From Phlegmacium glaucopus (lineage: Eukaryota > Basidiomycota > Agaricomycetes > Agaricales > Cortinariaceae): DNA of 64,000 nucleotides. Position 1 is the stretch's first letter. Each line of letters starts with the position of its first letter. A model generated the notes under the pieces. That model was not told where the DNA came from and searched no databases. It saw only the letters and a list, made by a program, of their open reading frames with translations. Location of the stretch: NCBI GenBank assembly GCA_015039465.1, contig MU130625.1, positions 371,959-435,958 of the forward strand, in the 5' to 3' direction. A program made the translations under genes and the position numbers. Of the stretch, positions 24,824 through 49,228 are shown piece by piece.

Positions 24824-27330
24824 TTAGTTGAGGTGATGGCTTTGTTTATAAAGTGACAATGTGTTGTTTGTGTTTTTGATGTGTGATTCCGGTTCCCACA
24901 TTGCTTCGGAAATCGGGTAATCTTTCCATCAGATTTTGAATTGGTATCCGCGTTCTCATTTTCTGTGTCCTATGATGGATTTGACTTCATATTCTTCCTC
25001 TCCGTTGTCAATTTCGGCAGGTGGTTTAAGAAAATTTGGTCCGTGTACTTCATTTTTGACATATGGCATGAGGAGGTATGCATGAAAAACATTGTGAATC
25101 TTCCATGTTTCAGGGAGTTTCAATCGGTAAGTGAGGGGTCCAAGGACTTTCTTGATTTGGAATGGCCCTTCTCGTTGATGTAACTGCACAGAGGTTGTTG
25201 AGAAAAGGTGTATTTTCAAGATTATAAAAATCTCTACTCAAAACAATAACTCAATCAATACTTTATACAATCTTAATAATGCAAGTTGGGTTTTCTAGAA
25301 AGTATAACCTTTCCAAGACTTTGAAATTCACTTCAACTAATACACACAACAACAACAATAATTTGGATCAATTGAAGGATGATCAAACTTTTAAGTGGTT
25401 TTGCAATTTATGGCTTGCACCAACAATCAGTCAAAGAATTCCTAAGACTTTACTGATTGATTTACAATTTGTGTACACAAAAGTCCAAGACTTTGTTACA
25501 ACTTCAACACAATTGCATACACAAGAAGACTCAAACTTCTGCTATGACTTTAACACAATTGCATACACAAGAAGCCCTCTTGCTTCTGCTATGACTTTAA
25601 CACAACAACAACTTTTACAACAATTCAACAATTATTGCAACAAGTCAAACAACTCTGAGAAACTGATTTATTTTCAAGTCCACTACTCAAAGACAAGTGT
25701 TCTTGCTCAATGTCTAAGACAGTGAGCTGTACTAGGTTGCAAATGAGGGGGGGAAAGAAAGAATCCAATTTTCTGACTATTTACAAACCCTGGGAGGTAT
25801 TTTATACATTTGAGATATTTAAAAATAGATAATGTCCAAAAATAGATATACTGGTTCCTGGTACCCTTACTTTGGTTCTGGCACCATGTGCACTCATTGT
25901 TCCTGGAAACATAGGGGTTGTTCTATTTTTAGCCCCATGTTCCTAATTTTAGGTAGTTTCCACCCCTCTTGGTGGGAACTGTGCCTATTGTGCCTGGAAA
26001 CAATCTTTATGATTGTTCAGCACTCCCCCTATCCTTAATCATCATGATTCCCACACAATCACATGGTTCCACTATCTTGGTTATTCTGCTTCCACTGTTG
26101 CTAGGGCACCAACTTCCCCTGCATATTTATTAATAATATTCTGTTGCTCCACAATCACACCCCATGACATTTGCTAACCCAATATTGTTTATTTAACTTT
26201 TCCTGTGCCAAGTCTATAAGGATATTCATGGATTTATTGGTTTTAATCCAGACATGCAATTTGTAGTGTAACAAATGATAGTCTATTGACCACACTTATT
26301 AACTATATGCATTTAAGTCACACAGTAATAGGTCTAATCAGCAGTTGTAGGGTAGACAACTCTGATTCCCTTGTTTATTATCAGTTGTATTAACCAGTTA
26401 TTGGTGCATTAATTAATATTTATGCTGAAATAATAGATAAAAATTGCAAAAACCATGCTTATGCAGATTTAAATCATATCATCGTCGTGGAGCGATCTTT
26501 TTGTTGTATTTTGTCCGTAGGTTCCTAGAGTCTAACCAGACTAGTTGTCCTTCTTGAAACAGTTTGAAATTAGATTTGATCCTATTTTCCATTCGGTGTC
26601 TTGCCAGTTCGTGTGCTGCTAGAGCTTCTTCTTGGTCTTTGAGTAACTTCTGTGTTCATTATTCAACGGCAGGGAATTGTGTGTATGGAGATAGGAGATG
26701 ATCCCATGATGAGTTTGAAAGGGGTTTGTGTTCTTCCAGAATGTCTTTGATTGTTATGGGTAAATTCAAGTGTCGGTAGAGCGGTTAGCCAGCTTGTTGG
26801 ATTGTCGAAACAATAGATGGAAAGGTATGCTTCAATTTCTTGATTAAAGCATTTGGTGGTTCTGTCTGATTGTGGATGGAAAGCCGTTGTCTTCGCATGT
26901 TCTATTCCAAGTAATTTGAAGAGGTTTTCAAAGGCTTTGGCAGTAAATTGGGGATCTCTGTCTGAGATCATCTTGTCTGGGAGTCTGAATCATTTGTAAA
27001 GATTGTCAAGTAAAAATTGAGTGATGTCTTCTGAGGTGCAGGTTTTTGTGCAAGGGATAAGAATCACCCCCTTTGTAAGCCCATGGTTGACCACAACCAA
27101 TACAGCATCTTTGCCATTGATAGGTGGTAAGTCTGTGATCAAGTCCATGGAGCAGTTCACAAAAGGTCTAGAGTCTTTTGGTCCTTCAATTGGTAGAAGA
27201 GACAGTTTTGATGGGTTTCTGTTTATCTTGAATTTTTGACAGTCAGAACATCCTTTCACATAGTTTTTCACAAAGGTGCAAAGCCCAGGCCACCAGTAAT
27301 GTTGGGAGATCGAGTTGTACAGGGTATTCT
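24824..27330 (-). pseudogene. Ty3/Gypsy retrotransposon pol remnant: integrase and chromodomain
   Basis: On the minus strand, fragments in order are the integrase zinc/core region (CSDCQKFKINRN, then MDLITDLPP with the first catalytic Asp, at 27271-26990), the core continuation (ISDRDPQFTAKAFENLF, ending with the Glu of NQEIEAYL, 26971-26663), and a C-terminal part (EGPFQIKKVLGPLTYRLK, VHGPNFLKPP, 25219-24956). A chromodomain end with MWEPESHIK stops at 24824. The order and motifs are those of chromoviruses in fungi. Frameshifts and stops make it non-functional. It is split by the insertion at 25176-26481 and lacks reverse transcriptase here. Confidence 0.85.
25176..26481. mobile_element. LTR-like insertion, family C, with target duplication TCGT
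   Basis: A 1306-bp insertion interrupts the Gypsy pol remnant inside the block corresponding to APRREGPF. It begins TGATGT and ends ATATCA, and is flanked by TCGT at 25172-25175 and 26482-26485. Removing the insert and one TCGT rejoins the pol reading frame. The TG...CA ends and 4-bp duplication fit a solo LTR. It contains an open frame (25279-25725) rich in Asn, Gln and Thr with short internal repeats, probably not a gene. Confidence 0.8.
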
Positions 27331-34559: not shown

Positions 34560-35321
34560 CATGCACCATCACCGATCATCATGGCCGGATGTTGGTCTGG
34601 TACCTGCCAAATATTTTGTGACCTGAACGCCAGGTGCTGTCAAAAACTTGTACATTTGAGGATGGACACACTGATGTGAAGACAGGAATCAATGTTTGTG
34701 GACCTCAACATGTTAGATTGGGCATTGAAGGTGGACCCGAAGCTGTCAAATAACTGGCAAACCTCTCCAGAGTATTTTCAGTTGGTTGAAGGGGGTTTGA
34801 AATGTGGGACCTTGAATATTTCCCCTGCTCGGTTTGAGCAAGGACATGAGGTATTTAGGTGCTTATTGCATGTCTGCATGAATCTAATTAGTACAACAAA
34901 CCAACGAGCACTTCCTGAAGGTGTTGTTAGACCTTATGAAGGGGGCCCAACTTGCGAGTGGTTGAGAAAAAGCAGGTCATTATTTGCATTGATGGGAGGT
35001 ATCCTCAGCATTGTCCAACTGGAACTATTCGACTTGGGTGTGCAGGCCCTACAGCTGTTAGAATCTGACCCGGAAGTGTGTGATAACCCAGAGAGGCTCC
35101 GGGAGCTTTTGGGTATTTGGCATATGCCATTTTCTGCACTCTCAGTCATCAGCAATTGGGTCACCCCATTACACTGTGATACTGGTGGATGGGCAGAGTG
35201 GATGGACTTGATGTTAGCATTGGGTGAGTATGACAATGGCTGATTTGGCGTCCCAGCCTTTGGGTACACCTTCAACTATAATCCTGGAACAGTAGTTGCA
35301 TTGTCATCGAAGATCTTCCGG
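34560..35321 (+). pseudogene. TET/JBP-type 2-oxoglutarate dioxygenase pseudogene
   Basis: Motifs in order are GRMLVWYLPNIL, LNISPARFEQGH, a helical core (LRELLGIWHMPFSALSVI), the Fe(II)-binding H-x-D in VTPLHCDTGG, WMDLMLALGEYDN, and YTFNYNPGTVVALSSKIFR. This order and wording match the basidiomycete expansion of TET/JBP dioxygenases, which oxidise 5-methylcytosine in characterised members and are often carried near DNA transposons. A frameshift near 34585, a stop in NIL, and a TGA at 35242-35244 show decay. The LTR at 35322 cuts the gene just before the position of the second iron-binding His. The assignment rests on motif memory, not a search. Confidence 0.7.
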
Positions 35322-36981: not shown

Positions 36982-37279
36982 CCGCGAATGAAGATGCGAT
37001 GACAATGCAACTACGGTACCAGCATTATAGTTGAAGGTCTACCCAAAGGCTGGGACGCCAAATCAGCCATTGTCAAACTCACACAATGCTAACATCAAGT
37101 CCATCCACTCTGCCCATCAACCAGTATCACAGTGTAATAGGGTGACCCAATTCCTGATCACCGAGAGTGCAGAAAATGGCATATGCCAAATACCCAAAAG
37201 CTCCCGAAGCCAATCTGGGTTATCACACACATCCGGGTCAGATTCTAACAGCTGTAGGGCCTGCACACCCAAGTCTTAA
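36982..37279 (-). pseudogene. Inverted partial copy of the TET/JBP pseudogene
   Basis: On the minus strand it repeats the 3' part of the dioxygenase (ALQLLESDPDVCDN, the H-x-D block, YNAGTVVALSS). It shares the TGA found in the left arm and adds further stops. Sharing that stop suggests inversion-duplication after inactivation. Confidence 0.75.
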
Positions 37280-37488
37280 TAGTTAGCTAATGTAGTGAAT
37301 GAAATAAAACAAATGCGCTCACGTCTCAACTTTGGAATAAAGTTGAGACTTGTAATAAAAAAGAAATCCGTGACTAAAAGAAAGTTATTATGTAATACGC
37401 AAGATATCGTGAACAATAAACAAAAGAATGATAAGATAAACAGATACTTAAAATAACAATCAACGACTGAAACTCGCACAGTTCAACA
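37280..37488 (-). repeat. 3' LTR of the Copia element (possibly truncated)
   Basis: About 209 bp, ending on the plus strand in CAGTTCAACA next to the purine tract (37489-37500). It contains the inverted pair GTCTCAACTTT...AAAGTTGAGAC. Its outer end abuts the inverted repeat at 37279 without a proper TG/CA end, so the LTR was probably cut by that rearrangement. The partner LTR is in the reversed block. Confidence 0.75.
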
Positions 37489-37641
37489 CTCCCCCTCAAG
37501 TGAAACACCGTTGATTCCCATTATCATGCACGCGATCATCAGGTGACGATGAGCGTGCTGATTGCGTTATCGATGGTTATTGTTCTTGCTTCTCGAACTG
37601 AGTTTAAAAACCGCTACTTCTTCAACTCCCCCAATCCTAGT

Positions 37642-38218
37642 TAGTGTTTGGAAGTCCAGTTGCAGGACTGCAAAAAGACTGCAAAAAGACCAGACCAGAC
37701 TGCAAAAGACCGGACCAGCAGTCCGGTTTTTTGGTTTTTGAGAAGCAAAGACTGGAAAAAGACTGGTCTTCGGTCCTAGGACCGGTCTGAACCGGTAGTC
37801 TTGTAGCGCCTATTTTTCCCTTTAAAACAAGATAAAGACCGTATTTATTGGTCAAATATTCACTGAGAAAAAAATAAAACAGTAAAAATGTACACAAAAT
37901 AGTAGGAAACAAATAATATCACCATAAAATTGTCAATTCCCAACGGAATTTAACGTTCTTGGGCTTATTCTAAAGGTATAGATCACATCTACATATTTGT
38001 TTGATGTTATATATGAAAATATGACTGGTATTTGTCAAAAGTCCGGTCCTGGACAGTCTTGGACCAGGACTGGTCCAGGACTGCAAAAAACCGATGTGGA
38101 CCGGTCCTAATTGGTCCAGTCCGGTCTTTTGACCTTTTAGAAGCTTAGTGGACCGGTTTCAGTCCCGGTCCTGCCCAAAAATACCAAAAACTGGACTGGA
38201 CCGGACTTTCAAACACTA
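37642..38218. mobile_element. hAT-type MITE with 8-bp target duplication ATCCTAGT
   Basis: The 577-bp element has ends TAGTGTTTGGAAGTCC and (inverse) TAGTGTTTGAAAGTCC. It is flanked by ATCCTAGT at 37634-37641 and 38219-38226. The interior is built from variants of GACCGGTCC and ACTGGACC. It sits in the Copia element just past the RNase H coding region. A relative lies at about 55510-56010. Confidence 0.92.
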
Positions 38219-39971
38219 ATCCTAGTCTCTCGATGAATTGCACAAATTTTGGTCTCGCTAACGCTTTGGTGAAGATGTCCGAAACATTTTCGTCGGTCGG
38301 TATGTAACTTATTTCCATCTTGTTGTCTTGGATGAGTTCCCTAATGAAATGATACCGAAGGTCGATATGCTTGGTCCTGGAATGGAATTTGTTATCCTTC
38401 GTGAGCGCTAGTGCTCCTTGGTTGTCGCAGTTGACTTGGATAGGTCCCGATTTCGATCCTCGCATCTCATCTACAAAACTCCTCATCCACAATGCTTCTT
38501 TGGCTGCATGAGTAAGTGCAATATACTCTGCTTCCGTGCTTGACAATGCGATAATGTGTTGTTTCTTCAAGCTCCAGGGTATCACTCCCCTCCCGAAATG
38601 AAAGGAATACCCGGATATTGAGTGCCGATGCTTTTGGCTTGCCCAATCTGCGTTGCAATACCCCTCCACAAGAACGTCTGATCAACCTCTGAATGTGAGC
38701 CAATATCCTTTCGTAGTCCCCAAGTATGTAATGACTCGTTTTAACCCTTCCCAGTGTGCTGGTCCCGGATTTCGGATGAACTGGGATAAGATGCCAACCG
38801 CATACGCTGCGTCAGGCTGCGATACGACAACCGGCCATAAAACGCTTCCAATGGCTTCATTGTATGGTACGCCTTGCATTCTTGATACTTGGTTCATGGA
38901 CGATGGGCATTGGTCAACCGAATATTGGGCACCCGGTTCCATGGGGGTGCTTACCGGTTTGGCATTGGTAAGTCAAAAATTTTCAACTATACTTTCGATA
39001 TACGCTTGTTGATTAATGGATATCATTCTAGCAGTCCTGTTTCGTCAAATTTCAAAACCCAAGAACCACCCGATAGGTCCGTTATCAGTAATGTCCCAAT
39101 GCCTTTTGATTTCTGCTTTAAACCTTTCAGCATCGATCATTCATTTTGATGTTACGGCCATGTCATCGGTTGCCACTGCAACAATCATATGTTTGTCACC
39201 AGAGCATCAATAGAAGACCGAATGATCAGCCACGGATCGCTTGAAGCCTAGATTGTCCATGAAGACCTTGCTCATTTCCTTATACCATCCTCTCCCTGCT
39301 TGCTTTAGGCCATATAAGCCCTTCAACAGTCTCAACACCTTCCCTTCCTGTCCTGGTTTTAAAACTCCACGCGGTGCTTTCATATAAACAGTCTCTTCGA
39401 GAGGCGCATTTAGGTAAGCGCTTTTCACGTCAACATGTTCAATCTCCCAATCTTGTTCTGCAGCATTTCCAAGGACTGCGCGAACAGTTGGCATTTTAGC
39501 AGCAGAGGAAAAGGTTTTGGTGTAATTGAATCCTTTGACTTGCCTGTGGCCACCTGCTACGATTTGTAATCTGTAGCTTTGTACTTCTCCACTTGGTCCT
39601 CGTTTTACACAGAGAACTTCACCACATGGTATTGCTACTTGGCCCTTAGGTAAGTCTTCAACTGCCCAAGTTCCAAACTTTTTGAGCTGATTTATTTCGT
39701 ATTCCAGGGCTGCTTGCCATTCCTTCGCATTAGGGCCACGTAACGCTTCATCAAGCGATCGAGGGTCGGATGGATGAGAGCTTACAAGGGCAAAATCCAG
39801 GGGCAATGAGCTAAGTTCGTTATCCTCGTCGATAAATTGATCTGACGAGTCGACTTCAGCAGTTACGTCCTCGCAATAGGCTACAGCTGCTATTAGGCCA
39901 TCATTCATTGCCTTATATGCACCTCGGGGTTTGCGTGCACAACGACCATGTCCATACTGTTGAACATTCAG
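38219..39971 (-). pseudogene. Copia pol: reverse transcriptase and RNase H
   Basis: The first reverse transcriptase part (39971-39207) shows HVDVKSAYLNAPLEE with the first catalytic Asp and LLKGLYGLKQAGRGW. A TGA follows FY at 39207. The next part carries the ATDDM active-site pair at about 39170, then more stops. The polymerase tail (GSVLWPVVVSQPDAAYAVG) and RNase H follow, with CNADWASQKHRHSISG, LSSTEAEYIAL, NQGALALTKD and RTKHIDLRYHF, all typical of Copia. The enzyme is not translatable as a whole. Confidence 0.88.
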
Positions 39972-40742
39972 TGATAGGACCCAGGAGACGTCTAGGGATG
40001 TAAACACACCATTTTCGTGGTTTCACAACCTTCGCAGTATACTTGCAGATGCTCACATATCATTGCGGATACTTGCAGATCATCGCAGGTCATTGCAGGT
40101 CATCGCAGATCATCACAGATCATCACACATCATCACACATCATCACAGATCATCGCACATACTCGCAGATCATCGCAGAATACTTGCAGATCATCGCAGA
40201 ATACTCACAGATCATCGCAGATACTTGCAGTCATCACAAACATTCACATTATCATTCACAGTTACCAGCTGTTCTTGCAATCTTTAAACACGGCTCCAAC
40301 AAAGGTCACTCAGGTGACTGTATTACTCATCACCTTTATTTTTATCTTGTCTCCCTTTGTTTGGCTCTTATCTCCTATGTTTCATTACCAAATTACTGGA
40401 CCCATGTGATTCCGCTTTAACCCATATTTTACATTCCTGTTTCACCTTTCCGCACTTAGCTATTGCTAGTTACTATATTATTAGCAGTAGCAAGTAGGGT
40501 AACAGAACAGGGGAGAGCAGATGAATTACCACAGTTTTGATCCCACCTTTGGAACATTGTACTAAGCTACACTTGCACTCCTTCAAAATCATCCTGCGGA
40601 CTTTGCTTTTTCTGCGCATTATCTCGCACTTTAAAGCAAACCTTCGCACCTCATAAAACCTCACTTTCACCTATTGAAGAGAACTACATCAACCCCACGA
40701 ACTGTGTACTACTTGCAGTCTGTCCCCACCGCAGGTACATCA
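39972..40742 (-). mobile_element. Solo-LTR-like insertion, family A, reverse orientation
   Basis: 771 bp from TGATAGGACCC to GGTACATCA, flanked by TCAG (left) and TCGG (right). Deleting the insert with one flank restores an open pol frame (HADDPNVQQYG) across the site, which confirms the 4-bp duplication. It contains a 10-bp tandem array (ATCATCGCAG units, 40070-40230). Confidence 0.88.
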
Positions 40743-41086
40743 TCGGATCATCCGCATGTTCAAGAGTTGGTTCGGTTGTGGGCTCGACTACAGGAATTTC
40801 TACTGTGTCTTCGTGCATATTGTCAGGATTATGTTCAAGTTGAGATTCACTGATAGTTTCTGTATGAGATTTCTCAGTTTCTTCGGCATTTTCAACAATA
40901 TTTGAAGACTGGTGGATGATTTTATGTTTCTCCCCCTCAGACAGTGAGTCTCCAGGTATGTCAAAATTTACATTGGTATGTACATCGTCGTCGTTGAAAA
41001 CAACATTTCTCTCAACAGTGATTGAGCGTTTTTCAGGCCAGTAGATGCGATATCCTTTCGATTCAGAGTCATAACCCACGAACCAT
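40743..41086 (-). pseudogene. Copia pol: integrase-to-RT linker segment
   Basis: Encodes VGYDSESKGYRIYWPEKRSI, then an acidic spacer. It lies between two LTR insertions and is in frame with both outer pol parts once these are removed. This is the usual region after the integrase core in Copia. Confidence 0.85.
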
Positions 41087-41966
41087 TGATGTACCTGCGG
41101 TGGGATCAGACCGCAAGTAGTAACATAGTTCAGAGGGGTTAATGTAGATTTCCTCGATAGAATTTAAAGAGAAGTCCACGGTATTGAAATATGCAAGAAG
41201 AGTAGACCGCGAGGATAGCGAAGTTCGCGAATGATAACGCGGTTCGTGAAGTAGCTTGAAGGATAAGACTATTGACTTAGAACGTTGCTGCAAAGTTTAT
41301 GGGATCAAAACTCTGGCCGTCTCTTGTTCACCTTTCCTCCTACTTGCTACAGGTACTTAATACAAGGGCAACAAGCTAGCCAGGTGCGGATATGCGAAAC
41401 AGTAATGTAAAAATTGAGCTAATGCGCAGTCACATGGGCCCAGTAGTTTGGTAACAAAGAAATAGGAGATAGAATAATAATAGAAGTGATGAGTAAGGAG
41501 GTCAGTTGAATGACCTCCTGTTTCAAAGGAGATGATAAAATAATAATATATATAGAAAGTTAAAAGAAAGTAAGTTGAAAACAGCACGGACCATGATCAA
41601 ACCAGTGAAAGGGATGTGTATGCGAGACGTGAAAGACCGCGAGATTAAAGAGAAGCTGTACAAAGGTGTGGTTGCAAAGGAAAGAAATGGCTAAGTCCAG
41701 TATTGATAGAGAGAGTTGAAGATATGTCAAAGTATGAAATGCGAAGAGGAATGAGGGTGCGTTGGATAGTCAGAAAGGTTGTAGAAGTGACGTGCAAAGG
41801 TTATGCGAGGATTATAGTATGTTGTGCAAGATGCAAAGGATGTGCGAGAATTGCGAATGAAGATGCGAACGAAACTGGTACCAGCGAGGTATCCACGTAT
41901 ACTGCAAAGTTGTTAAAACACAAAAATAACCAGTTTACGAACCTAGAGGTTATATGGATCCTATCA
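41087..41966 (+). mobile_element. Solo-LTR-like insertion, family B, complete copy
   Basis: 880 bp from TGATGTACCTGCGGTGGG to GGATCCTATCA, flanked by CCAT (left) and CCGT (right). The pol frame reads AKRGRFVGYD when the insert and one flank are removed. It serves as the reference copy for the arms of the inverted repeat at 35033-37279. Confidence 0.88.
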
Positions 41967-43090
41967 CCGTCCGCGTTTGGCTCGAGCATCTAGTTTTCCG
42001 GCTTGTAGATCCTTGACATAGGCGGCTGCACCAAACTCTTTGATACCACCAAGGTACGGTTTCTCTTTGTTAATCATTTCGTATGGAGTCTTTCCATCTA
42101 ATGATCGAGCAGGAGTTCTATTTTGAAGCCAGGTTGTATGCTTCATGGCCTCTTCCCACAAGAAATGAGGTAAGCCGGATGCAAGAAGTAAGGCGCGAGC
42201 TCGTTCAGCTTGCGTTTGCATTCCTCTTTCAGCAGTTCCGTTTTGGGGTGGTGAATCGTGAACAGTGAGTTCGTGTTTCGTACCTCTTTCGTCTTGGTGC
42301 TGAATCATTTGCTTTGACAGAAACTCTCCCCCTCAATCAGACCGTACCATCTTTATGCGGTTGCCGGTTTTGAGTTTCTATGAACGCTTCATCCTGTTTA
42401 TAGGATTTAAACGTTTCACTTTTCTTCTCTTGGAAGTAAAGCTTGGTCTCACGAGTCGTGTCATCGATACGAGCTGCTACATAGTGATGACCATTTAAGC
42501 TTTTGACTGACGCAGGACCCCATAGATCCCAATGGACCCTTTCACCATATTTTGTGGCTCGAGTTTCTGATTGTTGTGGATATGGTTGCCTTATTGATTT
42601 AGCTTTAGCACAGGCTTCGCAAAACTCAATCTTGGAATCATTATCCAAGTCAATTCCGGTGATATACCCCTTGGAGACAGCATGTTTGATAGCGGAGAAA
42701 GAAATGTGGCCGAGTTTTTGATGAGCCTCATTTATGTTCATTTTCTCAACTGCTACATTGGCATGATGCCCTTTTTGGACCTGTCTCGATATGGGGATTC
42801 GGTATAGATTATCAACACGAGGGATAGTCGCAATCGTACATCCATTTGCCTGTTTTATTGTGCATTGACCTTTATGGAATGTTACTAGGTATCCGGCCTT
42901 TTCGAGTCTGCTGATTGAAATCAGTGTAAAAGCCAGGCCTGGTGCGTGTATTGGGCCTTTAAATGTTGTCCTGGTTTTTGACGACCCATTTGGCAGGTCT
43001 AAATGCATATCTCCCATGCCAATGGCCTTTACCATTCGACTGTCGGCAGTTGTGATATCGCGATCAATTTGTTGATAGTTGGTGAAGATT
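41967..43090 (-). pseudogene. Copia pol: protease end and integrase
   Basis: Contains the integrase zinc domain (EAHQKLGHISFSAIKH, then CEACAKAK) and core (VHWDLWGPASVKSLNG, IDDTTRET). After a stop at 42337 comes SPPQNGTAERGMQTQAERAR with the catalytic Glu. The frame stops once just after the protease motif in the gag entry and again between 42309 and 42339. Confidence 0.85.
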
Positions 43091-43110
43091 GAGCGATCAG
43101 GAGAGTAGTC

Positions 43111-44217
43111 TCAGGTGGCTCCACTGTCAACGCATCCAGTTAATTGAGATTTCAAGGCAGGTACTGCATTTGCAACGTCGACATAGTCAGAACTGCAGGT
43201 AAAAGCAAATAATTTGTCTTCTTTGTCATCAACAGCTACAATGGCTGACTCCATTTTCTTAGGTTTCTTTTGATGCGGACCTTGACCTTCTTTGCCACCA
43301 CCCTTTGACCAACAGTCCGGTTCTTTGTGCCCTGGTTTCCCACAATTTCCACAGGTGTCATCGGAATTTGTTTTTCCTTGCTTATCAAACCTCTTTTGCT
43401 TGCCGTGTCGATGCCTTCCACCTCTTTTTGCTTGGGCAGCAAGCGCAGACTCAGCAGTCTTGCCACGTTCGTCATTTATGACACGGTGATGCACTTCCTT
43501 GATGATGAAGGAGATAAGGTCGTCGGATTTCATCCGCTGTGATTGACCTCCTGAGAGGGCGCTAGCACGTTCGGCAGCTGTGATGGTCTGAAGAGTTGGT
43601 CGGTAGGATTCCGGTAAGGACGACATTACAATGATGTTGAAACGTGTCTCGGATATGTCTGATCCCATCTTTAACAGGTCATCGCATCGTTGAACCATCA
43701 ACTGGGGGTGTTGTTTCAGCTCTGTTAGGTGAGCTTTTGGCTCCTCGTTTTCAGTCAGTTTCATATTAGAGAGCTGATCTTCTGCATCCAAGATATACAA
43801 GGTGCTTTTGGTGGTCGCGTCCGCTTTCACCATTTTCCACATGTCTTCAGCTGAGGTCATTGTGAGAATTTTAGAGGCAAGACGTGTTGAGACCGACGAG
43901 GGTATGATGTGCTGAGCTGAGTACTCGCATTTTTCAAACTCTGTCATTCTTAACTCTTTTGTTTCAATCTGCTCTTCCGTAGCACGTGTCTTTCGGTCTT
44001 CTAAAACCAGAACCGAGTCAACAAGTGCAAATGGTTTGGACGCTGTCGCGGTTCCTTCTATGTGTCTCCACAGTCCTTTCGATCCCATAGCCTTATGGAT
44101 TCTGGGTTCGTAATCTGCCCAATTACTTCTGTCGTCACGGAGTTTTGGTATAGCTAGATTTGCAAATTCGGAGTTGGAGTTCATTGTGAGGCTAGACAGT
44201 TTGTCTTTGGGGCCCAT
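43111..44217 (-). CDS. Copia gag polyprotein with zinc knuckle and protease start
   Basis: 368 codons from an ATG at 44217. A UBN2-type gag domain (NWADYEPRIHKAMGSKGLW, SSLPESYRPTLQTI) is followed by a basic region and the CCHC knuckle CGNCGKPGHKEPDCW. It ends in the protease active-site motif CVDSGAT immediately followed by TGA (43111-43113). In intact elements the frame would continue. The gag frame itself is open, so it may be the best preserved part of the element. Confidence 0.85.
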   Translation of the reverse strand: MGPKDKLSSLTMNSNSEFANLAIPKLRDDRSNWADYEPRIHKAMGSKGLWRHIEGTATASKPFALVDSVLVLEDRKTRATEEQIETKELRMTEFEKCEYSAQHIIPSSVSTRLASKILTMTSAEDMWKMVKADATTKSTLYILDAEDQLSNMKLTENEEPKAHLTELKQHPQLMVQRCDDLLKMGSDISETRFNIIVMSSLPESYRPTLQTITAAERASALSGGQSQRMKSDDLISFIIKEVHHRVINDERGKTAESALAAQAKRGGRHRHGKQKRFDKQGKTNSDDTCGNCGKPGHKEPDCWSKGGGKEGQGPHQKKPKKMESAIVAVDDKEDKLFAFTCSSDYVDVANAVPALKSQLTGCVDSGAT

Positions 44218-44342
44218 AACCTGTTGGGATAATTTTGCAGCTAGAGAAAATAGTAATGAGTCTCAACTTTGGAATAAAGTTGGATTTATATTAATGGTAA
44301 GTTACCTAGAGCAAATAGTAATGACTAGGTAATAGTTAGCTA

Positions 44343-45695
44343 AAAGGGAGGTGAGGTGAGATTACAGGTAACTAAGTCGTGGTGTTCTGGGACTGAGCCA
44401 ACGTAACGACCGGGAGGGTTTGTGTTTAAGTCACAAAGGACGAGTTGGGTTTCATGGGACCTTCCTTTGTACGACCTTTTTCGAACGGACTAGGGGGTTA
44501 GGTGGGTTCTTCGTTTTTTTCAATAAAGTTGACCTGGTACAGGGATGTTTGTGGTTACACGTAGTCCCGGTTCAGGAGTCTCTCTCTTTGCCCTGTATCC
44601 TCTTCTAAAGGCAGCAAACCCACTAAGTACACTCCAACTAGGATCTATAAATTTCCACTCAATAACAAAGTAACAAGCGGACAGACAGGTCCTAACTAAA
44701 CCAAGGAGATTTCGGCTGGGAACGCCTTTACGTTTTACGCATATGACGTTAGGCCGGTCTGTTACCAAGGGTGGAAGGTATGGTATAACCCATACTTGAA
44801 CGAGAGTTTCGACCCCTCCTTGTGGAACTGGTACACCTTATGTAACTCCTTGTCCGTACCTTACGACCACTTAGGGAACTCGTACAAGTCCCATTGGAAC
44901 TTTCTACCAACCTGTCGACCCTGGACATTTAACATCAAGAACGATCACAAGTTAAGAAAGAACTCAGAACAGAATATAACAGATATAAAATAGATATAAC
45001 AAATCTTAATCTTAATGTTCGTCGTCTAAGACCCATCCGAAAGTGAAGAGAGTTCTGGACTGAGTTTGGTCGAAAACTTTGTCGGGTCAGGACGGTTAAC
45101 TAATAGGATTGAATGGGCCAGTCGAATGTATGTTTAAACCAGTTAGATGAATGTAGCAGATTATAGTAGTCATTATTGAATCTCAATTCGTCGTCTTAGA
45201 TCATCCGAAGGTGAGAGTTCACTTATGGGTTGACTCTGGTCGGAAACTTTGTGGACTAGAACGGTTAAGTGATAGATGCGTATCGACGTCTCAGTCGGAT
45301 TGAATGGGGCAACCGAATGTATGTAGATAAATAATCATAATTATAATACAACTCTGTCGACTAAACGAGACCAATCTGTAGGTTTAAAGTATATAGACAT
45401 GGTTTGGTATTTACATATTTTCCGTCTTGTTTTGTAGTTCCCAGTCTTCGAAAACCATCAGCCGAACTACGTTGGTACAGGGTGAACCCTCTGGCTACAA
45501 CTTGACACGCTCAAAGTCAGTAACTAACAATAAAATTCATAGACAAATAGAATAGTAAGAAAACAAATAACAAGTGCTATAGAACACATAATGTATTATT
45601 GAAAGAAAATCAATGCCTAAAGAAAAAATAATGTTCAGAGTTGAAATAAGGTTTCAACTCTGCACTCGCGTAAACAAAATAAAGTAAGTGATGTA
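44343..45695. other. Sequence block stored in reverse without complementation
   Basis: Positions 45510-45695 are a letter-by-letter mirror image of 37283-37470 (the Copia LTR) with only a few differences. This cannot arise from ordinary recombination. The plain complement of 44363-44929, read left to right, contains coding-like sequence: an ATG (44363), a frame beginning MSIDSAPQDPDSVALLALP, and a later open frame with KPTLAEMQNAYTAIRPDN and GYELALKAGEEHLDHVEYIE ending in TAA at 44927-44929. Reversing the block in place joins TAATAGTTAGCTA to ATGTAGTGAATG, exactly as in the 3' LTR. The block ends at the N gap. Confidence 0.93.
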
Positions 45696-45795
45696 NNNNN
45701 NNNNNNNNNNNNNNNNNNNNNNNNNNNNNNNNNNNNNNNNNNNNNNNNNNNNNNNNNNNNNNNNNNNNNNNNNNNNNNNNNNNNNNNNNNNNNNN
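45696..45795. other. Assembly gap of 100 N
   Basis: Exactly 100 N, the conventional size for a gap of unknown length. The sequence to its left is the reversed block. Confidence 0.98.
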
Positions 45796-45814
45796 CATTG
45801 TAGGTAATTCATCT

Positions 45815-46110
45815 GAACCAGCAGGGAACACAGGCATTGCTGAGGTTGAGGCCAAGTCTGGAAATGCTGGCAACATTGGTGACATTGGGGCCAAGTCTGT
45901 AAATGCTGGCAACATTGGTGAAATTGGGGCCGAGTCTGGAAATGCTGGAAACGATGGCAAAGTCAGGGCCGAGTCTGTAAATGCTGGCAACACTGGTGAA
46001 ATCAGGGCCGAGTCTGGAAATCCCAGCAACATTGGTGAAATTGGGGCCAAGTCAGGGAATGCTAGTAGGGCTGGTGACATTGGGGCCAAGTAGGGGAATG
46101 ATGGCCAAAA
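45815..46110 (-). repeat. 39-bp coding-frame tandem repeat
   Basis: About seven units of 39 bp. On the minus strand they encode a 13-residue unit of the type FPDLAPMSPMLPA, continuous in a frame running into the gap (46179 to 45796). It could be a low-complexity domain of a gene lost in the gap or simply a minisatellite without stops. Confidence 0.65.
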
Positions 46111-46360
46111 AGTTGGGCCTGAGTGGTTAGGGCCATCATTACCTGAGAGTATTCTGTTGGCTTTTTTTCTGTCAGGCAAAGTCTGGCTGGATGATCAGAG
46201 ACTGGCCAACTTTGTTGGGAAGGGATAAAATAAAATAATGAAATTTACCTCTTAAGCATTGTGGTATTGTGTACCACCAGGCACTTGACTAATAGTGAGA
46301 TAGGATGGTCGTTTGTTTTAAGGAAAGAAAAAATCCCTAGTGGCGTTTATCAGGTCATGT

Positions 46361-47646: not shown

Positions 47647-49228
47647 ATGGCTTCCATGTCCACTCAACCCTCCGGGAACTCAAAACCAGCCCAAACCCAT
47701 GACTCCCTTGTTTTAAGCTGGGGAAAGAGGCTGTGGACAGCCATCACCAAGGAGTCCATCTATGTCCTGGGTCATGACCAATTTTTCAAAGAGTTTGACA
47801 GTCTACATGATGTGGCTCAGGCCAACAAGAGCACTAAGATAACTCTGCTCAACCATGTTGCCCTGATCTACAATCATACCGCATCACAGGGCTACCAGCC
47901 CCATATCTATTACAAGCCACTCAAAGAGGCTGTTTTCAACTTCTGTAATAAGATGCCCATCGCCAAATGGATCGGCCCACCTGACCAGCACAGTCAGTCG
48001 CCTTCTCCTACTTTGGCTGCCCTACCCAAGGCATTGCCGTTGCCCAGGCCACCACTACCCCGACCCAAAATCAACTCACCCAAGTTTGCCCGTATGGTCG
48101 CAAGCAATTCAGGGCCATCAAAGAAGGGCAAGGCAAAGGCCCAAATTTTGGCCGAGTTTGTCCATTTGGACCTGGACAAGTCAGAAATTGAAGTGACGAA
48201 AGACCCCAAACCACAAATTATTCATTTGAAGCCCCTGTCCTCCACTCTTGGGATGGATCAGCATCCCACCCCATGTTTGTTGTGTGAGCAGAGGGGTCAT
48301 CTGTGTCACAGCAACCCGAAAGCCACCAGCACTCAGGCCGCCTGTTTCAAGTGCAACCACTGGAAGCTCAAGTGCTCCCTTGCACCTCCCCATGGGAAGA
48401 AGAAGGGTGAAACCCCAGCTCATCCAAATAGCGATGTTGAGGAAGTTCCACAGGAGACAGCTGAGAAGCCATCCAAAAACAAAGGGCATGCACACAGGAA
48501 GCTGACTCAGATTCCAGCTGGCCAGCCTGGCCAATACAGTGGTAAGTTATTTGTACTGCTTTTTGCTAATATATTCACTCATTCATTCTTTCTCTCTACT
48601 AGCTGCAACCTTGGCCCCCGAAATCCTCAAGAAGTTAGAGGACTATGAGTTGGGCAGGTGTCAACAGCTGGAGAAGATTGAAGAGCTGTCTCAAGCCATT
48701 GCCCAACTCACAGCAGAGAACAAATCCACCCGTGCATGGTTCAAAAGCCAACTCAAGTTGCTCTGGGACCATGCCAGTAAGCACGATGAGACTGTCAGAG
48801 CCGGTATGAGGAAGGTTGGAGAGCAGGCTGGAGAAATGTCCCAACAAGTTGAGAAGCCTGCTACAATTTCCTCAATGCCAGCGACGACTCTAACTCCCCA
48901 AACACCAGTGATTGAAAGCCTGGTCAGAACTGCAATTGCTGGTGCAACCGACATTCCGATAGGTGAGGAAGGGACTGTTGGAACTCCCAAGTTCAAAAGT
49001 GGCCTGGACCAGAATCAGGACTTCAGGGTAACATCAAGAAGCGCTGCAAACTTGGAGGAATTTAGAGTTGGGTGGGTTTTCTGGGTGGGCTCTTCATTGT
49101 ATTTTTGTACATATTCTATCATCCATCGCATCTTGGCGGATGGGCCACCCACTATTGTGGCCCCATTGTTTTGTTATCCAGGTCACTCAACAGTGGTGTT
49201 AGGGGACACTCATTGTGTCCACCTCTAG
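47647..49228 (+). CDS. Hypothetical protein with paired cysteine clusters and coiled coil
   Basis: Two exons (47647-48541, 48603-49228; 61-bp intron) give 506 residues. The N-terminal 110 residues look globular (SWGKRLWTAITKESIYVLGH). A Pro/Lys-rich linker follows. Cysteines then occur as CLLCEQRGHLC at about 210-220 and CFKCNHWKLKC at about 233-243, reminiscent of the C6 zinc clusters of fungal regulators but with different spacing. The second exon encodes a predicted coiled coil (EILKKLEDYELGRCQQLEKI). The last 40 codons may be intronic read-through. Similar proteins are, to my memory, multi-copy in agaricomycete repeats, so it may be a mobile-element passenger. It lies between two family A LTRs. 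Confidence 0.6.

What the first reader, a model, noticed from the sequence alone, without database searches (positions are those of the whole stretch)
44343..45695. A 1.35-kb block of the assembly is reversed without being complemented
Positions 45510-45695 are a mirror image (same letters, opposite order) of the Copia LTR at 37283-37470. DNA rearrangement produces reverse complements, not mirrors of this length. Two independent tests agree. The plain complement of 44363-44929 contains a coding-like open frame ending in TAA and GTGAGT-type splice signals. Reversing the block in place also gives an exact LTR junction with the sequence ending at 44342. The block touches a 100-N gap, so a contig end was probably mishandled. 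Any gene call inside it is false, and a real gene there is invisible to normal annotation.
Basis: seen in the sequence. Interest (0 to 1): 0.92.

Follow-up and report, generated by a model that had tools for sequence, protein, structure and literature searches.

The report
Backwards, uncomplemented block at assembly gap
A 1.35-kb stretch of a public mushroom genome is written backwards without being base-complemented, an error of the assembly software and not biology, and the same error recurs elsewhere in this genome, where it hides or breaks real genes.

Summary
Observation and interpretation both hold. Window 44343-45695, against a 100-N gap, is stored reversed but not complemented. Its last 199 bases mirror a Copia LTR. 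Read backwards, the block continues the LTR cut at 44342 without a missing base and matches a native copy on contig C188 (score 969; 30.5-43 in the other orientations). Base-order statistics without homology agree.

The error recurs in this assembly (Phlegmacium glaucopus): mirrored blocks lie beside N gaps (C91, C105) and beside runs of 25-26 A (C188, C206, C15). Runs of exactly 25 A occur 157 times on the stored strand and once on the other; 26 A 72:1; 24 A 0:1. They are placeholders. 12 of the first 30 such loci hold a stretch called mirrored.

Likely cause: a long-read gap filler, probably PBJelly, some of whose flank extensions were written reversed. Eight paper searches found no report.

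The parts
44343..45695 (.). block stored reversed without complement
45696..45795 (.). 100-N gap that the block abuts; stands for about 130 bases by comparison with C188
45497..45695 (.). mirrored remainder (199 bases) of the element's right LTR
44222..44342 (-). native first 121 bases (plus-strand order) of the right LTR; probable end of the original short-read contig (inferred)
37277..37488 (-). left LTR of the same Copia element, lacking about 108 outer bases
38145..44217 (-). Copia coding pieces: RVT_2 39207-40007, GAG-pre-integrase 42337-43035, copia-type gag 43111-44217; 38145-38669 taken as RNase H by eye, no Pfam hit
44345..44929 (.). C-terminal part of the hidden gene, readable only in the plain complement; intron about 44656-44713 inferred from the paralog
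45796..46179 (-). normally stored repeat-rich N-terminal part of the same gene, resembling the paralog's start by eye (not aligned here)

Best explanation
The block is an assembly artefact. A short-read contig ended at 44342, inside a Copia LTR that is repeated elsewhere. A gap filler extended that end by 1353 bases, probably from long reads, and wrote the extension reversed but not complemented in front of the remaining 100 Ns. Reversing it in place restores LTR, flanking DNA and gene. Shown: the mirrored state, both edges, recurrence in the same assembly, and one-strand 25-A placeholders at several such joins. Inferred: that the tool was a long-read flank extender (PBJelly or a script around it) and that a reverse-complement step lost its complement half.
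For: Mirror match and exact edges; reversed part has copies on C188, C120 and C14, stored part does not; base-order score -48.3 against 300 other window positions with minimum -1.9, -44.2 with its neighbourhood left out of training; further mirrored blocks beside N gaps and A runs; 25 A 157:1, 26 A 72:1, 24 A 0:1 by strand; Pfam families in 5 of 5 reversed and 0 of 5 stored frames of other blocks; JGI hybrid genomes patched with PBJelly (one passage, PMC7550596); PBJelly extends flanks, has overfilled gaps and counts 25 or more N as a gap (passages, PMC3504050).
Against: Not every placeholder or gap has a mirrored neighbour: 18 of 30 A25 loci had no call, and L004 and L023, which touch Ns, had none. 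Whether this species was a hybrid assembly was not seen (supplement not available). Why only some extensions are reversed, and why the placeholder reads A, is unexplained. Raw reads were not available.
Confidence: 0.97

Rival explanations
1. An artefact of another origin: a contig or consensus mishandled by the assembler or a later script of the sequencing centre, not by a flank-extending gap filler.
For: PBJelly's use for this species was not seen, and the 25 placeholder bases read A, not N.
Against: Blocks lie between a contig end and a gap or placeholder, on either side of it, as flank extensions would: C105 both sides of an N gap, C188 both sides of an A run.
Confidence: 0.25
2. A real mirror: the DNA of the fungus does hold this stretch in reversed, uncomplemented order.
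For: Only that the public sequence says so.
Against: No known copying process yields it (established knowledge); the block ends at a gap, and similar blocks lie at gaps and at placeholders that are not DNA.
Confidence: 0.002
3. An ordinary inversion or a low-complexity mirror repeat.
For: Mirror repeats of simple sequence exist (recalled).
Against: The reverse complement scores like shuffles (35.5; shuffle mean 33, maximum 55), and about 1.1 kb including coding sequence matches only when reversed.
Confidence: 0.001

Closest known systems
PBJelly flank-extended and 'overfilled' gaps (PMC3504050, PMC9635638, PMC7757076, PMC4580222; passages seen)
   Same: New sequence added to contig ends beside a gap that stays open; two extensions that do not meet; 25 N as smallest gap (PMC3504050).
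   Different: The passages seen do not mention reversed, uncomplemented extensions or 25-A placeholders.
False inversion in a scaffold
   Same: A segment in the wrong direction with an edge at a gap.
   Different: A false inversion is reverse-complemented and can still be found and translated; this block cannot, on either strand.

Membership tests
Sequence reversed without complement (assembly artefact) | Matches relatives only when reversed | tested here: met
   969 against 30.5-43 on C188, 721 against 28.5-35 on C120, 199 against 18.5-31 on the LTR
Sequence reversed without complement (assembly artefact) | Base-order statistics reversed, without use of homology | tested here: met
Sequence reversed without complement (assembly artefact) | Raw reads contradict the stored order | not testable with these tools
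   no reads held
PBJelly flank extension | Added sequence sits between a contig end and a residual gap | tested here: met
   window, C91, C105 beside Ns; C188, C206, C15 beside A runs
PBJelly flank extension | 25-base gap unit | tested here: inconclusive
   25-A runs 157:1 by strand, but A not N; 25 N or more is a gap in PBJelly; the 25-base filler in overfilled gaps is recalled
PBJelly flank extension | PBJelly was run on this genome | tested here: inconclusive
   used for hybrid genomes of the project; the table for this species was not seen
Copia LTR retrotransposon (37277-44342 and block) | RVT_2, copia-type gag, GAG-pre-integrase, LTRs at both ends | tested here: met
   the right LTR is complete only when the block is reversed, the left one lacks about 108 bases; integrase core not searched for apart

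The most novel reading that the evidence does not exclude
The fault is a systematic bug of a widely used hybrid-assembly route, so that many public genomes built the same way carry reversed, uncomplemented DNA, flagged by one-strand 25-A runs, which aligners and gene callers cannot see and which has gone unnoticed.
Probability: 0.4. Interest if true: 0.6.

Novelty: not a real feature. Interest (0 to 1): 0.4.

Why it matters
As biology it is nothing. As data quality it matters: genes and transposons in such blocks cannot be found by normal searches, and a TPR-repeat gene on C41 carries a reversed stretch inside it (L052). Gaps are understated, because the 25-A placeholders do not read as N. The strand asymmetry of exact 25-A runs and the base-order score are simple tests that can be run on any assembly.

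Tried and rejected
Real mirror DNA, simple inversion and low-complexity mirror repeats were rejected. A search for a deposited false protein (226-aa stored frame of L027, C5) found none among the 7992 candidates scored. Rfam found nothing in the window at gathering thresholds. Ten paper searches were made; eight of them sought a report of reversed, uncomplemented sequence and none was recognised in the listings. Passages were opened in PMC7550596, PMC3504050, PMC4580222, PMC9635638, PMC7757076, PMC6191289 and PMC8081667; the other listed papers were not opened. A first k-mer score trained on the window alone gave two other negative kilobases (10001: -19.2; 51001: -27.5); the fuller model called neither. 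A weak call at C188:172577-173900 (-16.7) was not followed up. In one search hits to the window in stored orientation were left out of the printout. L035 and L037, which repeat parts of L024 and L021, were left out of training but counted among the 30 loci. For the Pfam control I took 5 of the 11 blocks.

Full report
WHAT WAS CHECKED. The window is the last 64 kb of a 435,958-base contig (G000:C225:371959-435958) of an assembly of 60,534,613 bases in 259 contigs. One of its frames matches, at 100% over 89% of the query, hypothetical protein BYT27DRAFT_7217436 of Phlegmacium glaucopus, listed on a contig of the same length. The species is an agaric of the Cortinariaceae with a strain entry AT 2004 276. 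I take it to be the fungus called Cortinarius glaucopus in PMC7550596; that synonymy is recalled.

THE MIRROR. BLASTN of the reversed, uncomplemented window against itself gives one match, seen from both sides: 45695..45471 against 37290..37513, 94.2% over 225 nt. Positions 44222-44342 hold the first 121 bases of the element's right LTR. Appending the reversed block continues this LTR in register to its end; the partner is an independent LTR on contig C5. The left edge is thus 44343. At the other end, the reversed block's last 120 bases align to C188 up to 162641, and the sequence after the Ns begins at C188:162772, so the 100 Ns stand for about 130 bases if the copies are equal.

FOUR ORIENTATIONS. 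Against C188 the block scores 969 reversed, 30.5 stored, 35.5 reverse-complemented and 43 complemented; 50 shuffles reach at most 55. Against C120 it scores 721 reversed and 28.5-35 otherwise; against the window's left LTR 199 and 18.5-31. In the whole genome the reversed non-LTR part has copies on C188 (91%, full length), C120 (79%, nearly full length) and C14 (95%, part), plus two 50-base matches. The stored block finds itself and five other places, all within its LTR part; these lie in other stretches that are themselves mirrored.

NO-HOMOLOGY TEST. A fourth-order base model, scored forwards against backwards and iterated over 167,281 bases of window and loci, calls 44276-45595 without any alignment. 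The block scores -48.3; 300 other (overlapping) window positions of equal length have a minimum of -1.9 and a mean of +39.2, 1 of 300 below zero. With its neighbourhood left out of training the block scores -44.2, and three 400-base pieces -16.9, -16.8 and -12.3; of 154 other 400-base pieces of the window 3 fall below -5 and 18 below zero. GC/CG is 1.56, AT/TA 1.28 and (CA+TG)/(AC+GT) 1.29 in the rest of the window, 0.39, 0.79 and 0.74 in the stored block, and 2.55, 1.26 and 1.36 in the block reversed.

THE HIDDEN GENE. On C120 a 375-aa frame (L023:5262-6389, minus) has an annotated paralog of 318 aa, BYT27DRAFT_7253963, function unknown; the only other match at E 0.001 among the 7997 candidates scored is a 402-aa Hebeloma protein (33%, E 6e-4). 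The frame matches the plain complement of window 44345-44926 at 64% over 195 residues, E 2e-66. By eye the N-terminal part lies in normal orientation beyond the gap. Within the block the frame changes near an A run and has an in-frame stop, so this copy may be decayed or the consensus rough; I cannot tell which.

RECURRENCE. Mirrored sequence, by homology or base order or both, was found at C206:65822-68551 (around an A run at 66194-66219), C105 on both sides of a 2566-N gap (about 202731-203909 and 206476-207665), C188:162856-166457, C91:119629-120397 beside Ns that end at 119628, and C15 up to 389530, where an A run begins. The base-order test missed C91 and C15. On C105 the left block, reversed in place, starts in the LTR and runs into the polymerase part, and the right block, reversed in place, runs from gag into the LTR: one Copia element entered from both sides with its middle missing. 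On C188 the order agrees with the window and with C14 if two blocks are reversed separately, and between the two lies a run of 26 A at 165175-165200.

THE 25-A PLACEHOLDER. Runs of exactly 25 A occur 157 times on the stored strand and once on the other; 26 A 72 times and once; 24 A never and once. Natural poly-A would be about as frequent on both strands and would not begin at 25. I conclude that 25 A is a placeholder and that the 26-A runs are mostly the same with one chance neighbouring A: some 229 sites, longer runs not counted. Of the first 30 listed 25-A loci (of 158 matches), 12 contain a stretch called mirrored by base order, 10 of them within about 210 bases of the run (L027, L029, L034, L036, L038, L041, L044, L045, L052, L055) and two further off (L039, L040); 18 of 30 have none by this test. 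The test misses some: L037 (the C15 site) is mirrored by homology, and L030/L042 and L042/L045 hold mirror matches between two stretches that are both uncalled. Of 60 flanks of 400 bases, 10 score below -5 and 14 below zero, against 3 and 18 of 154 control pieces. Seven LTR loci (L002-L008) and two others (L012, L013), all without an A run, had no call, nor did the rest of the window; L024, with an A run, and L004 and L023, which touch Ns, had none either. One block, on C13, is a 99.8% mirror of window 25173-25992 over 821 bases (L034).

PROTEIN CONTROL. For 5 of the 11 blocks I gave Pfam the longest stored and the longest reversed frame. Stored: 0 of 5 had a family at E 0.001 or better. Reversed: 5 of 5 (PIF1 helicase 5e-62; RVT_2 3e-4, below its curated cut-off; ankyrin 1e-47; TPR 9e-58; RVT_2 7e-46). 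On C41 (L052) a TPR gene is native to the left and right of a 470-base mirrored piece that ends at the A run.

MECHANISM. The mycorrhizal genome paper says that JGI hybrid genomes were assembled with ALLPATHS-LG and patched with PBJelly (one passage, PMC7550596); whether this species was one of them I did not see. The PBJelly paper describes extension of contig ends into gaps that stay open, 'overfilled' gaps where two extensions do not meet, and 25 or more N as a gap (passages, PMC3504050). That PBJelly leaves 25 placeholder bases in overfilled gaps is recalled, not seen. Why only some extensions are affected, and why the placeholder reads A, stays open; a failed complement table in one code path and a two-bit recoding of N are guesses.

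VERDICT. A real and correctly described artefact: confidence is very high that it is an artefact, moderate that it comes from long-read flank extension, lower that PBJelly itself is to blame. It is not a biological feature. Its interest lies in the extent of the fault and in two simple tests for it.

Noticed in passing
whole assembly G000; e.g. C188:165175-165200, C206:66194-66219, C15:389531-389555: Runs of exactly 25 A lie almost only on the stored strand (157:1; 26 A 72:1; 24 A 0:1): placeholders that do not show as gaps.
   Followed up: partly
L052:1028-1501 (C41): A TPR-repeat gene holds a mirrored piece that ends at a 25-A run, so its stored frame is broken by the artefact.
   Followed up: partly
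L034:421-1241 (C13) against window 25173-25992: A 99.8% mirror over 821 bases of a normal stretch of this window.
   Followed up: no
window 34692-35243; C188:160804-161353; C120:133085-133634; C14:210368-210917: A weakly Tet_JBP-like gene (E 1.3e-4, below the Pfam cut-off) recurs on contigs that also carry the hidden 375-aa gene family and relatives of the frame at 47647; perhaps cargo of one repeated element.
   Followed up: no
window 37277: The left LTR of the Copia element lacks about 108 outer bases and borders on a different repeat; a real truncation or a second assembly fault.
   Followed up: no
window 40026-40189 and 40707-41122: A 10-bp-unit tandem array and a pair of 43-nt inverted arms (86% complementary, 330 nt apart) within the Copia coding region.
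   Followed up: no
window 45811-46122: Six overlapping copies at 39-bp spacing, within the repeat-rich N-terminal part of the hidden gene.
   Followed up: no
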